Positions 50,408-55,131 of a DNA stretch of 64,000 nt are shown one piece after another. A program made the position numbers and the translations under genes. The notes beneath the pieces are model-generated. The model was not told the origin of the DNA. It saw only the letters and a program-made list of their open reading frames with translations, and did not search any database. The stretch's first letter is position 1, and each line of letters starts with the position of its first letter. The stretch lies in contig OX638379.1 in NCBI GenBank assembly GCA_951813605.1, forward strand, positions 1,746,471-1,810,470. Direction: 5' to 3'. This DNA is from an uncultured Bryobacterales bacterium (GTDB lineage Bacteria > Acidobacteriota > Terriglobia > Bryobacterales > UBA6623).

Positions 50408-50569
50408 ATGGAACACCTTCCCGAGCCGCGGCACCGACCTAGCAATTCTCGTCGTCCGAGTCCGTCGGCTAAAGGCTGGAGGCGGATCTACGTCTCCGTG
50501 CTGGCTCACCTTGGGCTCTGGATCGCGGGCCTTTGGTGGTTTTCTCGCTGGTTCGGTTCCGCTCCATGA
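50408..50569 (+). CDS. 53-residue membrane peptide coupled to the SSS transporter
   Basis: A short gene from ATG 50408 to a TGA at 50567-50569. It has an AGAGGT ribosome site 5 to 6 bases upstream. Residues 1-26 are basic and Pro/Ser-rich, followed by one membrane helix (VSVLAHLGLWIAGLWWF, about 29-45) and a short tail SRWFGSAP. The stop shares ATGA with the start of the sodium:solute symporter gene. Small accessory peptides with one or two helices upstream of SSS symporters are known (for example DUF4212-type), and position, coupling and topology fit such a role. I cannot assign the family from sequence. It probably assembles with or stabilises the transporter. Confidence 0.7.
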   Translation: MEHLPEPRHRPSNSRRPSPSAKGWRRIYVSVLAHLGLWIAGLWWFSRWFGSAP

Positions 50570-52272
50570 ATGCTCTCGACTGGTTGGTCCTAGGGGCGTC
50601 TTTCGCCCTCATCATTGGCTACGGCCTGAAACGTGCAGGCGGTGAATGGTCGGTCGACTCCTACGTCTCCGCTGGAAAGAAGATGCGCTGGTGGGTGATC
50701 GGCTTGTCGATCATGGCCACACAGGCCAGCGCGATCACGTTCATCGGCACCACCAGCCAAGGCTACTCGGACGGTCTCCGATTTGTTCAATTCTACTTCG
50801 GGCTGCCGATCGCAATGGTGCTGATCTCCGCGTTCGCAGCACCGGCCTTCCATCGATCCGGCGTGCGCACGGCTTACGAATACCTCGAGAGGCGTTTCGA
50901 TGCAAAGACCCGCACGCTTGCGAGCTGGGTGTTTCTGATCCAGCGCGGCCTCGGCGTTGGCCTGGCCTTGTATGCCCCGGCTGTGGCCCTCTCCGTCATC
51001 TTTCAGGTTCCCGAGTGGCCGACGATTCTGGCGATGGTCGCGCTTGTCTCGGTCTATACGGTCCTAGGCGGCATTCGCGCCGTGATGAGGGCCGATGCCT
51101 TGCAGATGTGGATCATGTTCGCCGGGATCGCTATCGCGTTCGGCTACGCGGCGTTCGGGCTGCCCGAGGGAGTGTCCGTGCGGGACGCTCTCTACCTAGC
51201 CGGAACCGCCGGAAAGCTCAACGCAGTCGAAACCGGCTTTGACTGGGACAGCCGCTACACACTTTGGTCGGGCCTGATCGGAGCCACTTTCCTCTCTCTC
51301 GCGTACTTCGGCACCGATCAATCCCAAGTCCAGCGCTACTTGACTGCGAAGTCCTTGTTCCACAGTCGTATGAGCCTCCTGTTTAATGCATTGCTGAAGG
51401 TCCCTCTACAGTTTTTCATCCTATTGACGGGCGTGCTCGTATTCTGCTTCTTCCTGTTCGAGGCACCTCCATTGCTCTTCCATCCCGCCGAACGGGAGCG
51501 CCTCGAGCAGACGGACGCCAGCGAAATCGCACGTCTGGAGGAGCGATTCTCTCAAGCGCTTGAACAACGGCGCGCAACCGCCGAGAACTTCCTCGCATCG
51601 CGCGGGAGCGCGGAGCAAGAGGCATTCGCAGCCTCGGATCGAAGGGTGCAACAGGTGCGTCGCGAGGCCATCACCCTCGCTGAGAGGGAAACCGGACCCG
51701 GGAGCTACAGCGACACGAACTACGTTTTCCTGACCTTTGTGCTGACTCAGTTGCCGGCCGGCCTTGTCGGCCTGATCATGGCAGGGGTCTTCGCGGCGGC
51801 CATGTCGACGATTTCCTCGGAGCTCAACTCGCTCGCCACCGCTACCGTCGTTGACCACTACGCTCGCTACGTAAGACCGCGCTTGAGCGAAGTCGGCATG
51901 CGACGGGCGCTGCAATGGGCCACCCTGGCCTGGGCCGCCTACGCGGGGGTCTTCGCCAGCTACGGCGGCAGGCTCGGGTCCTTGATCGAGGCGGTTAACT
52001 TCGTGGGTTCCCTGTTCTACGGGCCGATGCTGGGCGTGTTTGTACTTGCGCTCATGTTTCGGCGGGTGACGGCCGACGGAGCGTTCTGGGGCACCGCATT
52101 CGGCTTGATCGCGGTATGGGGGACCAAGCTGGCATTCCGGAGACTCGCATTTCTGTGGCTCAACCCCCTCGGTTGCATGGCCACCGTACTGGCGGCTGTC
52201 CTTCTGTCGCGCAAGCGCAACGAGCCCGGAGAACAGGATGCAATTCGAGCCTCTACAATGGGAGGTCCATGA
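50566..52272 (+). CDS. Sodium:solute symporter (SSS family)
   Basis: The 568-residue transporter has about 13 to 14 helices and SSS features: SVDSYVSAGKKMRWW (residues 29-43), SAITFIGTTSQGY, VYTVLGGIRAVMRADALQMW (164-182, the family GGxxAVxxxDxxQ signature) and YFGTDQSQVQRYLTAKS. Between helices lies a charged, coiled-coil-like insert (about 305-385; ERERLEQTDASEIARLEERF), unusual in short SSS proteins but seen in some sugar/uronate carriers. ATG 50566 shares ATGA with the preceding small peptide, and its own stop shares ATGA with the sulfatase start, so the three are translationally coupled. The substrate is probably the desulfated sugar or another anion (inference). Confidence 0.9.
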   Translation: MNALDWLVLGASFALIIGYGLKRAGGEWSVDSYVSAGKKMRWWVIGLSIMATQASAITFIGTTSQGYSDGLRFVQFYFGLPIAMVLISAFAAPAFHRSGVRTAYEYLERRFDAKTRTLASWVFLIQRGLGVGLALYAPAVALSVIFQVPEWPTILAMVALVSVYTVLGGIRAVMRADALQMWIMFAGIAIAFGYAAFGLPEGVSVRDALYLAGTAGKLNAVETGFDWDSRYTLWSGLIGATFLSLAYFGTDQSQVQRYLTAKSLFHSRMSLLFNALLKVPLQFFILLTGVLVFCFFLFEAPPLLFHPAERERLEQTDASEIARLEERFSQALEQRRATAENFLASRGSAEQEAFAASDRRVQQVRREAITLAERETGPGSYSDTNYVFLTFVLTQLPAGLVGLIMAGVFAAAMSTISSELNSLATATVVDHYARYVRPRLSEVGMRRALQWATLAWAAYAGVFASYGGRLGSLIEAVNFVGSLFYGPMLGVFVLALMFRRVTADGAFWGTAFGLIAVWGTKLAFRRLAFLWLNPLGCMATVLAAVLLSRKRNEPGEQDAIRASTMGGP

Positions 52273-53693
52273 GGAAAGGCATCTTGTGGCTCGCGTTGGG
52301 CCTTCTCCAAGCCAGCGTGTGGGCAGAACCCCCTAATATTCTGTTCATTGCGGTGGACGATCTCAATGATTGGATTGAGCCGATGGGCGGTCACCCGCAG
52401 GCAAGAACGCCCAATCTGGCGCGACTCGCCCGTCGCTCGACACTGTTCGCCCGAGCCTACACCGCTGCTCCGTCCTGCAACCCCTCGCGAGCGGCGCTGA
52501 TGACCGGGGTCGCGCCGTACCGCTCGGGCATCTACTCCAACTCGCAGGCTTGGCGACCGGCGATGCCAGACGCCGTGACCCTGCCTCAGGCGTTCAGGAA
52601 GAGCGGATATTGGGCCGGAGGGGCAGGGAAGATCTATCACGGCGTTTATCCGGACCCTCCTTCCTGGGATGAGTACTGGCCGTCCAAGTCGCAGCAACGA
52701 GCGCCAGACCCGCTCCCCCCGCAGCGGCCCGCGAACGGCATTCCGAATACTGGCAATTTCGACTGGGGACCGTTGGAAATAGACATAGCCGAGATGTCCG
52801 ATTACAAGGTGGCCGAATGGGTTGCAGGAAAGTTGCGCGCAAGGCACGACAAGCCGTTCTTCCTGGCCTGCGGCATCTTCCGGCCGCATCTGCCTTGGTA
52901 TGTTCCGAAGAACTATTTGGACCGCTTTCCCAGCGATTCGATCGAACTTCCCAGGGTCTTTAGCCGCGATCTCTTGGACGTCCCGACGGCCGGTGTCAAG
53001 ATGGCGAGGCCGGAGCGGGACCACGCCAGCGTCGTCGAACACGGCCAATGGAAGGAAGCCGTGCGGTCGTATCTTGCTTCCGTGAATTTCGCCGACGAAA
53101 TGATCGGCACGGTATTGGACGCGCTAGACGAAGGCGGTCATGCGGACAACACCGTGATCGTCTTGTGGGGTGACCATGGATGGCATCTGGGCGAGAAGCA
53201 TCACTGGCGCAAGTTTGCTCTTTGGGAGGAGGCAACCCGGGTGCCCTTGCTGATTTATGCCCCTCCGGGGACACCGGGTCTTGCCGAGGGTACGCGACAA
53301 GGTGCCGTGTCCCCGAGACCGGTCAATCTGCTCGACATTTACCCAACTTTGCTGGATCTCGCGGGACTCGAGCCCCTAGCCGAGCTGGACGGTCGAAGCC
53401 TCGTGCCACTGCTGCGGAATCCTGAGCAACCATGGCAACCCACTGTAACGACCTACGGCCGCCTGAACCACGCGGTGCGCTCCGAGGATTTCCGGTATAT
53501 CCGGTACGCCGACGGGAGCGAAGAGCTGTACGACCACCGGGTGGACTCGATGGAGTGGACCAATCTGGCCGGCGACGAGTCGTACGCCCAGGCCAAGCGA
53601 GAGCTGTCGAGGTGGTTGCCCGAGACGAATGTGCCGGAGGCACCGGACCAGCCGCGAGACCGTCGCACGAACGAAGTAGCGGTGCCTCGCTAG
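52269..53693 (+). CDS. Sulfatase (iduronate-2-sulfatase-like), secreted
   Basis: The 474-residue protein starts at ATG 52269 with a perfect GGAGGT ribosome site and a signal peptide ending near WAEPP. Metal-site text NILFIAVDDLNDW (residues 23-35) and the formylglycine motif CNPSRAALMTG (Cys70) are present, as are LWGDHGWHLGEKHHWRKFAL and the iduronate-2-sulfatase-like GGAGKIYHGVYPD. It should remove a sulfate ester from a glycan or uronate-containing sugar. Its start overlaps the stop of the SSS gene, indicating cooperation with that importer. About 0.25 kb downstream the PQQ dehydrogenase gene begins, in the same direction. Confidence 0.9.
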   Translation: MRKGILWLALGLLQASVWAEPPNILFIAVDDLNDWIEPMGGHPQARTPNLARLARRSTLFARAYTAAPSCNPSRAALMTGVAPYRSGIYSNSQAWRPAMPDAVTLPQAFRKSGYWAGGAGKIYHGVYPDPPSWDEYWPSKSQQRAPDPLPPQRPANGIPNTGNFDWGPLEIDIAEMSDYKVAEWVAGKLRARHDKPFFLACGIFRPHLPWYVPKNYLDRFPSDSIELPRVFSRDLLDVPTAGVKMARPERDHASVVEHGQWKEAVRSYLASVNFADEMIGTVLDALDEGGHADNTVIVLWGDHGWHLGEKHHWRKFALWEEATRVPLLIYAPPGTPGLAEGTRQGAVSPRPVNLLDIYPTLLDLAGLEPLAELDGRSLVPLLRNPEQPWQPTVTTYGRLNHAVRSEDFRYIRYADGSEELYDHRVDSMEWTNLAGDESYAQAKRELSRWLPETNVPEAPDQPRDRRTNEVAVPR

Positions 53694-53937: not shown

Positions 53938-55131
53938 ATGAGAAATTGGTTGAAACTCTCGCTCTCCGTTCTTTGCGTCGCGGCGATCGCAGCTGGGGAA
54001 CCCAGCAAGCCCGTGAACTGGGAAGGCCTGCCCAAGCCGTTCCATAGTCCTTCGGCCAGAAACCGGCCGAACGTCATCGATCGTCCAGCAGATGGCAAGC
54101 TCATGGTTCCCGAGGGGTTCAAGGTCGAGGAGTACATAACTGGTGACTTTCAGCGGCCGCGGTTCATGACTCTCGGGCCTAGCGACGAGCTGGTGTTTTC
54201 AGATTCGGGCTCCCGCAACCAACCCGACGGCGCGGTTTACGTGAGCCGCGAGGGCCAGGTAAACAAGCTGATCGAGGACTTGGACCGCCCCTTCGGACTT
54301 GCGTTTCACGACAAGTGGCTCTACGTCGCCGAGACGACGTCGGTGAAGCGCTACGTCTACGATGCCAATGCGATGAGCGCAGGCAAGGGCGAGGAGATCA
54401 TTTCTTTCAAGGACTTCGGCAAGGGGCACTGGACTCGCTCCCTCTTATTCGACAAGGATCACGTCAAGCTGTACGTGACGGTCGGATCGGAATCCAATAT
54501 CGATCTCGGCGAGGACCCCATGCGTGCGGCGCTTCACCGCTACAATCCCGACGGCAGCGGTCACGAAACAGTGGCGACGGGCCTCCGAAACATCATCGGC
54601 TTGCAGTGGTATCCCGGATCGGATCAGATTTGGGCGGCGGTTCAAGAGCGGGACGGCCTAGGCGACGATCTCGCCAACGACTTCTTGGTCAACGTCCAGG
54701 ACGGCAAGTTCTATGGATGGCCACACGCCTACAACGGCCCTCACGCAGAGCCTCGTCACGAGGGCCAAGGCGCTGACATGGTCGAGAAGACGCTTTACCC
54801 GGACGTCCTGCTAGGGGCGCATGTGGCCGTTCTCGACATCCGGTTCTACACGGGCCATCAGTTCCCCGATAAATACAGGGGAGGGCTGTTTCTCGCCTTC
54901 CATGGTTCGTGGAATCGCGCCGAGCGTGTCGGATACAGCGTCACATTCATCCCGTTCAAGGACGGTCGACCCCAGTCTGGACCGCAAGACTTCCTGACTG
55001 GTTGGATGATGGCCCCTGAGAAGAGCGAGGTCTGGGGGCGTCCGGTGGGGCTGCTGCTGCTGAAGGACGGATCGATGCTGGTGAGTGACGATGGCGGCAG
55101 GAAGATCTGGCGTGTGAGCTACGGCGAGTGA
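53938..55131 (+). CDS. PQQ-dependent sugar dehydrogenase (sorbosone dehydrogenase-like), secreted
   Basis: These beta-propeller enzymes oxidise sugars using PQQ in the periplasm. The 397-residue protein has a signal peptide ending near AIAAGEPSK, and propeller text RPFGLAFHDKWLYVAETTSV, TVGSESNIDLGEDPMRAALH, WAAVQERDGLGDDLANDF and FHGSWNRAERVGYSV (typical of the GSDH/sorbosone branch), ending SMLVSDDGGRKIWRVSY. ATG 53938 is preceded by a large inverted repeat rather than a clear ribosome site. It lies downstream of the SSS-sulfatase operon. Free sugar from sulfatase action is a plausible substrate, but this is inference. Confidence 0.85.
   Translation: MRNWLKLSLSVLCVAAIAAGEPSKPVNWEGLPKPFHSPSARNRPNVIDRPADGKLMVPEGFKVEEYITGDFQRPRFMTLGPSDELVFSDSGSRNQPDGAVYVSREGQVNKLIEDLDRPFGLAFHDKWLYVAETTSVKRYVYDANAMSAGKGEEIISFKDFGKGHWTRSLLFDKDHVKLYVTVGSESNIDLGEDPMRAALHRYNPDGSGHETVATGLRNIIGLQWYPGSDQIWAAVQERDGLGDDLANDFLVNVQDGKFYGWPHAYNGPHAEPRHEGQGADMVEKTLYPDVLLGAHVAVLDIRFYTGHQFPDKYRGGLFLAFHGSWNRAERVGYSVTFIPFKDGRPQSGPQDFLTGWMMAPEKSEVWGRPVGLLLLKDGSMLVSDDGGRKIWRVSYGE

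What the first reader, a model, noticed from the sequence alone, without database searches (positions are those of the whole stretch)
50408..53693. Three-gene coupled operon: 53-residue membrane peptide, SSS symporter, sulfatase
Both junctions are ATGA overlaps, and the first gene is too short to be called by length-based gene finders. Seen: ribosome sites AGAGGT and GGAGGT, ATGA at 50566-50569 and 52269-52272, single helix in the peptide. Inference: the peptide is an accessory subunit of the symporter, and the sulfatase supplies its substrate.
Basis: partly seen in the sequence, partly recalled or inferred. Interest (0 to 1): 0.65.

Follow-up and report, generated by a model that had tools for sequence, protein, structure and literature searches.

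The report
Microprotein partner of a sodium symporter
A 53-residue single-helix membrane protein that is in no family library sits directly before a sodium-driven importer gene, and the same tiny partner accompanies this importer in nearly every bacterium examined across several phyla, so it is very probably a dedicated, overlooked subunit of the transporter.

Summary
In detail: a 53-codon ORF (50408-50569), an SSS/SLC5 symporter (50566-52272) and an S1-type sulfatase (52269-53693) are joined by two ATGA overlaps. The peptide is real. An HMM finds one homologue, always upstream of this symporter, in 104 of 110 related loci (Acidobacteriota, Bacteroidota, Ignavibacteria, Calditrichia, Gemmatimonadota and others). 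40 of 41 close genomes carry exactly one copy; the exception lacks the symporter too. In 297 genomes of the phylum, all 80 carriers also carry the symporter clade, 76 with the peptide immediately upstream. The core is under purifying selection (dN/dS 0.26; 0.84 and 1.5 in the other frames). It persists where other genes have inserted between it and the symporter, which argues against a mere leader peptide. It matches no Pfam, NCBIfam or PDB family. Best reading: a dedicated single-helix auxiliary subunit that works like MAP17 on SGLT2, without detectable homology to MAP17. The sulfatase is specific to this genus and one sister genus. The usual partner is a secreted PIG-L deacetylase, and bacillithiol genes lie nearby in several lineages, so "the sulfatase supplies the substrate" is plausible but untested. 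Substrate and mechanism remain inferred.

The parts
50408..50569 (+). 53-aa single-TM microprotein gene, proposed symporter subunit; conserved core about residues 24-50 (W24, Y28, V31, L35, I39), variable basic/proline-rich N-terminus
   Evidence: ORF; homologues upstream of the orthologous symporter in 104/110 loci; dN/dS of core 0.26; no Pfam/NCBIfam/PDB hit
50566..50569 (+). ATGA overlap of microprotein stop and symporter start
   Evidence: sequence; in the phylum sample 52 of 73 pairs have the frame offset that such an overlap requires
50566..52272 (+). SSS/SLC5-family sodium:solute symporter, 568 aa, 13 predicted TM helices plus a helical-hairpin insert (residues about 307-376) between M7 and M8
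   Evidence: PF00474, TIGR00813; AlphaFold2 model pLDDT 89.6, best PDB folds NIS, SiaT, SMCT1, SGLT1/2 with Z 35-45
51484..51693 (+). insert typical of this symporter clade, charged helical hairpin (symporter residues about 307-376)
   Evidence: alignment and model
52269..52272 (+). ATGA overlap of symporter stop and sulfatase start
   Evidence: sequence; overlap of 1-4 nt kept in most genus mates
52269..53693 (+). S1-type sulfatase, 474 aa, signal-peptide-like N-terminus, CNPSR formylglycine motif
   Evidence: PF00884/PF16347; PDB relatives arylsulfatase 6hhm, choline-sulfatases, iduronate-2-sulfatase; 75-80% identical orthologue after the symporter in 11 relatives
53938..55131 (+). glucose/sorbosone dehydrogenase-like protein; a ~397-aa ORF in the same place in most genus mates (likely neighbour, not shown to be part of the unit)
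   Evidence: PF07995; ORFs of 397-422 aa at this position

Best explanation
The first gene encodes a translated single-helix membrane microprotein that is a dedicated auxiliary subunit of the co-encoded SSS/SLC5 symporter. It is predicted to be N-in/C-out and to pack beside the 13-helix transporter, where it promotes insertion, stability or activity, as MAP17 does for human SGLT2. Translational coupling through the ATGA overlap would give roughly equal amounts of both. The symporter then takes up a small organic solute made available by a periplasmic enzyme: in this genus plausibly the coupled sulfatase, in the probable ancestral operon a secreted PIG-L deacetylase. SHOWN: sequence conservation, near-perfect co-occurrence and adjacency, purifying selection, retention when other genes intervene, fold of the symporter (as a confident model). 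INFERRED: translation, physical contact, topology, effect on the transporter, substrate and role of the sulfatase.
For: Upstream homologue with motif PPxxxxWxxxYxxVxxxLxxxIxxxYxxT in 104/110 loci; one hit per locus at E<0.01 among 22,748 ORF segments, always upstream on the same strand. Exactly one copy in 40/41 close genomes; G018 lacks the peptide and its best symporter hit is only 1.8e-34. 297 phylum genomes: 117 have the symporter clade, 80 the peptide, none has the peptide alone, 76/80 are immediately adjacent and two of the other four lie at contig ends. Of the HMM-negative symporter genomes, 31 of 36 examined have a divergent TM-ORF in the same slot (judged by eye). One copy in a genome with about 23 SSS genes. 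dN/dS of core 0.26 against 0.84 and 1.5 in shifted frames. Kept upstream although cutC (L057 clade) or bshC-bshB1-bshA (L083) lie in between. In a read-through model the peptide helix has pLDDT 92-97 and the linker below about 50.
Against: No physical interaction was tested: the models come without coordinates or PAE here, and a lone TM helix can also score a high pLDDT. A paralogue subclade (L029, L032, L048, L051) and L031 lack an adjacent peptide, so the fold can exist without it; at least in G026, G032, G034 and the L048/L054 genome another copy keeps it. The N-terminal third is nearly unconstrained (dN/dS 0.73). Solved SLC5 relatives such as NIS, SMCT1 and SiaT are known without such a subunit (general knowledge).
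Confidence: 0.82

Rival explanations
1. The small ORF is only a leader peptide or coupling device: its translation opens the symporter start, and the peptide itself does nothing.
For: ATGA overlap, no convincing ribosome site before the symporter, weak constraint on the N-terminus.
Against: Strong conservation of a TM motif; purifying selection on amino acids; kept where cutC, bshCBA or 164 nt separate it from the symporter, so that it cannot couple directly.
Confidence: 0.07
2. The microprotein serves the PIG-L deacetylase (or another membrane process) and is only a neighbour of the symporter.
For: In many loci the order is PIG-L, microprotein, symporter; in L083 the peptide stays next to PIG-L while bsh genes separate it from the symporter.
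Against: In this genus and many others PIG-L is not adjacent while the peptide still abuts the symporter; in the cutC clade it lies near the symporter without PIG-L; peptide presence implies symporter presence in 80/80 genomes.
Confidence: 0.06
3. The microprotein is a negative regulator or degradation tag of the symporter (as MgtR is for MgtB) rather than a supporting subunit.
For: Bacterial single-helix proteins of either sign are known (PMC10710835); sequence does not give the sign of the effect.
Against: It is encoded in the same operon and nearly universal in the clade, as expected of a subunit and not of a conditional inhibitor; absent mainly from duplicate copies.
Confidence: 0.1
4. Chance ORF with no product.
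For: Short, in GC-rich DNA where long ORFs are common; start codon varies (ATG/GTG/TTG).
Against: All comparative evidence.
Confidence: 0.01

Closest known systems
MAP17 (PDZK1IP1) with human SGLT2/SGLT1 (SLC5)
   Same: Single-TM auxiliary subunit of an SLC5/SSS transporter; MAP17 is needed for full SGLT2 activity and binds TM13 (PMC10803289, PMC9616851).
   Different: No sequence similarity to any PDB chain with the profile. The bacterial symporter model aligns to SGLT2 only up to residue ~549, so helix M13, which MAP17 binds, appears to be missing; the contact site must differ. Bacterial, operon-encoded, about half the length.
Bacterial SSS companions DUF485 (YjcH-ActP), DUF997 (YhdT-PanF), DUF4212 (pairings from general knowledge)
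   Same: Small membrane proteins encoded next to SSS symporters.
   Different: Those are larger, with two TM helices; none of the 61 peptides scanned hits these Pfam families at E<0.1.
AcrZ, MgtS, MgtR, MgtU and similar single-helix regulators of transporters
   Same: 30-50 aa, one helix, bind a transporter (PMC10710835).
   Different: Other transporter families; the passages of that review shown list no small-protein partner of an SSS symporter; here the peptide is part of the symporter's operon and nearly universal in the clade.
SSS/SLC5 symporters NIS, SiaT, SMCT1, SGLT
   Same: Same fold (Z 35-45) and family profiles.
   Different: Clade-specific ~70-residue helical hairpin between M7 and M8 and an obligate-looking microprotein.

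Membership tests
SSS/SLC5 sodium:solute symporter (symporter gene) | PF00474 / TIGR00813 above curated cut-off | tested here: met
   144.8 bits (cut-off 22.8) and 231.6 bits (cut-off 184)
SSS/SLC5 sodium:solute symporter (symporter gene) | LeuT-type fold of the SLC5 kind | tested here: met
   Model pLDDT 89.6; Z 44-45 to NIS and SiaT over about 460 residues
SSS/SLC5 sodium:solute symporter (symporter gene) | Na+-coupled transport of a solute | not testable with these tools
   needs uptake assays
S1 sulfatase (third gene) | Sulfatase domain and C-x-P/A-S-R formylglycine motif | tested here: met
   PF00884 168.3 bits; CNPSR in the translation
MAP17/PDZK1IP1 | Sequence homology | tested here: inconclusive
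   Profile finds no PDB chain at E<=10 although SGLT-MAP17 entries are in the library; short helices lose similarity fast
MAP17/PDZK1IP1 | Binding to TM13 of an SLC5 transporter | not testable with these tools
   complex not predicted with coordinates; equivalent helix seems absent from the symporter
DUF485 / DUF997 / DUF4212 SSS companions | Match to the Pfam model | tested here: not met
   no match for any of 61 members at E<0.1
DUF485 / DUF997 / DUF4212 SSS companions | Two TM helices | tested here: not met
   37-56 aa with one hydrophobic segment; one helix, residues 25-50, in the read-through model
Any named NCBIfam small-protein family | Hit above cut-off | tested here: not met
   none of 61 members; best chance hits E 0.02-0.08

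The most novel reading that the evidence does not exclude
The microprotein-symporter pair together with the secreted, Mca-like PIG-L hydrolase is a recycling/import module of the bacillithiol (or another glucosamine-containing thiol) pathway: the hydrolase trims an exported glucosaminide or conjugate, and the symporter with its obligate micro-subunit takes the product back. In this genus a sulfatase has taken the hydrolase's place in the operon.
Probability: 0.15. Interest if true: 0.75.

Novelty: new variant of a known kind. Interest (0 to 1): 0.6.

Why it matters
It would add a dedicated single-helix subunit to a whole clade of bacterial SLC5 transporters in several phyla, a bacterial counterpart in function of MAP17-SGLT2, found only because a short overlapping ORF was taken seriously. 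It gives a family profile, a conserved helix motif and a natural experiment (paralogues without the peptide) to study how one-helix subunits act on symporters. It also ties an orphan transporter to PIG-L hydrolases, sulfatases and bacillithiol genes, which makes its substrate searchable.

Tried and rejected
Plasmid search with the symporter: no match. PDB sequence search with the peptide or its profile: only chance hits. Pfam/NCBIfam on 61 homologues: nothing. Bacillithiol as the universal partner was tested: BshC is enriched (98/117 symporter-positive against 88/180 symporter-negative genomes, Fisher p 5.5e-10) and lies within 10 kb on the same strand in 17 genomes (0.4 expected), but 19 symporter-positive genomes, most of them one family, have no detectable BshC and 88 BshC genomes lack the symporter, so it is not obligatory; the phylum counts are not corrected for relatedness. 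Natural fusions of peptide with PIG-L or symporter: none seen; long open frames around some peptides are only GC-rich open frames. An alignment with peptide-only rows was misaligned by MAFFT and discarded. Structural superposition of the read-through model did not show where the peptide helix packs, because the alignments begin at the symporter. Literature searches found no description of this peptide; subscription papers are not covered.

Full report
OBSERVATION. The three genes exist as described. Peptide: 50408-50569, 53 aa. Symporter: 50566-52272, 568 aa. Sulfatase: 52269-53693, 474 aa. Both junctions are ATGA. The symporter scores 144.8 bits to PF00474 and 231.6 bits to TIGR00813; the sulfatase 168.3 bits to PF00884, with CNPSR. 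The peptide matches nothing in Pfam, NCBIfam or the PDB. The Shine-Dalgarno-like strings sit only 4 and 2 nt before their starts, and AGAGGT is not kept in sister species, so they are weak evidence.

IS THE PEPTIDE REAL? Orthologues of the symporter (50-78% identity) were taken from 40 related genomes and, with organism names, from a scan of 84,980 species (80 loci from Acidobacteriota, Bacteroidota, Ignavibacteria, Calditrichia, Gemmatimonadota, Aminicenantes and MAGs labelled otherwise). Nearly all have a 37-56 codon ORF just upstream with the pattern PPxxxxWxxxYxxVxxxLxxxIxxxYxxT, mostly with the same ATGA overlap. An iterated HMM finds it in 104 of 110 loci, once per locus at E<0.01, always on the plus strand upstream of the symporter, among 22,748 ORF segments. 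dN/dS over five close pairs is 0.26 for the 33-codon core, 0.73 for the N-terminal part, and 0.84 and 1.5 when the frame is shifted. The symporter itself is at 0.03.

GENOME-WIDE CO-OCCURRENCE. In 41 close genomes exactly one peptide is found in 40, and the one without it (G018) has no orthologous symporter. The window genome has one peptide and about 23 SSS genes. In an even sample of 297 genomes of the phylum, 117 have the symporter clade and 80 a peptide by HMM; all 80 are among the 117, 76 have the peptide immediately upstream on the same strand, and two of the other four are at contig ends. Of the 37 HMM-negative symporter genomes, 36 were examined and 31 have a divergent TM-ORF in the same slot (judged by eye). 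The peptide survives when unrelated genes intervene: cutC in the L057/L072/L085 clade (one event by tree; cutC by PF03932 in L057), and bshC-bshB1-bshA in L083. A few symporter copies lack it. Four of them form one paralogue subclade, and for G026, G032, G034 and the L048/L054 genome another copy keeps the peptide.

ANATOMY. The AlphaFold2 model of the window symporter (50 sequences, pLDDT 89.6, pTM 0.88) has the SLC5 fold with 13 TM helices and a confident ~70-residue helical hairpin (residues 307-376) between M7 and M8. Closest solved folds are NIS (Z 44.7, 458 residues, rmsd 2.1), SiaT (44.1), SMCT1 (44.0) and SGLT1/2 in complex with MAP17 (up to 37.1). Alignments to SGLT2 stop near its residue 549, so helix M13, which MAP17 contacts, seems to be missing here (inference and PMC10803289). 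In peptides, K/R are more frequent on the N-side of the helix (63 of 96, against 8 the other way), which predicts N-in/C-out. In species where peptide and symporter lie in one frame apart from a single stop, that stop was read as a residue to give a one-chain model. The peptide helix then has pLDDT 92-97 and the linker below about 50. No coordinates or PAE were available, so packing is not shown.

NEIGHBOURHOOD AND FUNCTION. The sulfatase orthologue (75-80% identity) follows the symporter in all 10 genus mates and one sister genus, mostly with overlapping or abutting stop and start, but was not seen next to it elsewhere. Of 73 scored named loci, 42 have a long PIG-L-like protein upstream. It has the PIG-L domain, an N-terminus that looks like a signal peptide, and mycothiol-conjugate amidase Mca as its best (sub-threshold) NCBIfam match. 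In this genus that protein is encoded elsewhere. BshC lies within 10 kb on the same strand of the symporter in 17 phylum genomes against about 0.4 expected, yet 19 symporter genomes lack BshC, so bacillithiol is a lead and not a rule. This genome has at least 151 sulfatases, so a sulfatase neighbour alone says little; conservation of the order in 12 genomes says more. A secreted sulfatase that exposes a solute for a coupled importer is reasonable, but no substrate can be named.

MECHANISM (marked). Shown: conserved, selected, co-occurring, adjacent microprotein; SLC5 fold. Inferred: it is a stoichiometric auxiliary helix that stabilises or activates the symporter, as MAP17 does for SGLT2. MAP17 is described as an essential auxiliary subunit, with TM13 contact and loss of thermal stability without it. 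Not known: sign and strength of the effect, substrate.

VERDICT. Single-helix partners of transporters, and of SLC5 proteins in particular, are a known kind; this one is a new, apparently undescribed variant with wide distribution. The sulfatase half of the idea is a lineage-specific detail.

Noticed in passing
L005 (G000:C1:5722084-5723277, another SSS gene of this genome): A different 44-aa hydrophobic ORF (MFELPLSTALLLLGFPLFWVVYTGIFLLATRNW...) overlaps the start of another symporter; L008 has a 35-aa one. No Pfam/NCBIfam match. Several SSS clades may have unrelated micro-subunits.
   Followed up: partly
L083 and L104 (Aminicenantes); G293, G299, G199 of the phylum sample: Bacillithiol genes (bshA, or bshC in G199) directly before this symporter; L083 reads PIG-L, microprotein, bshC, bshB1, bshA, symporter.
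   Followed up: partly
symporter residues 307-376 (window about 51484-51693): A clade-specific charged helical hairpin between M7 and M8, predicted with high confidence; could be a docking site for a periplasmic partner.
   Followed up: no
L012-L019, L021, L026 just upstream of the microprotein start: TAAGAT/TACGAT/TACACT-like -10 boxes about 7 nt before the TTG/ATG/GTG start and no ribosome site: the operon may begin with a leaderless mRNA.
   Followed up: no
window 53938-55131: Glucose/sorbosone-dehydrogenase-like gene after the sulfatase; an ORF of similar length lies there in most genus mates; may belong to the same pathway.
   Followed up: no
G000 whole genome: At least 151 PF00884 sulfatases in a 6.2 Mb genome, an unusually large set that suggests life on sulfated polysaccharides.
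   Followed up: no
L057, L072, L085: A cutC-family gene (tested in L057) inserted between microprotein and symporter; in L072 and L085 the inserted ORF overlaps the symporter start.
   Followed up: partly
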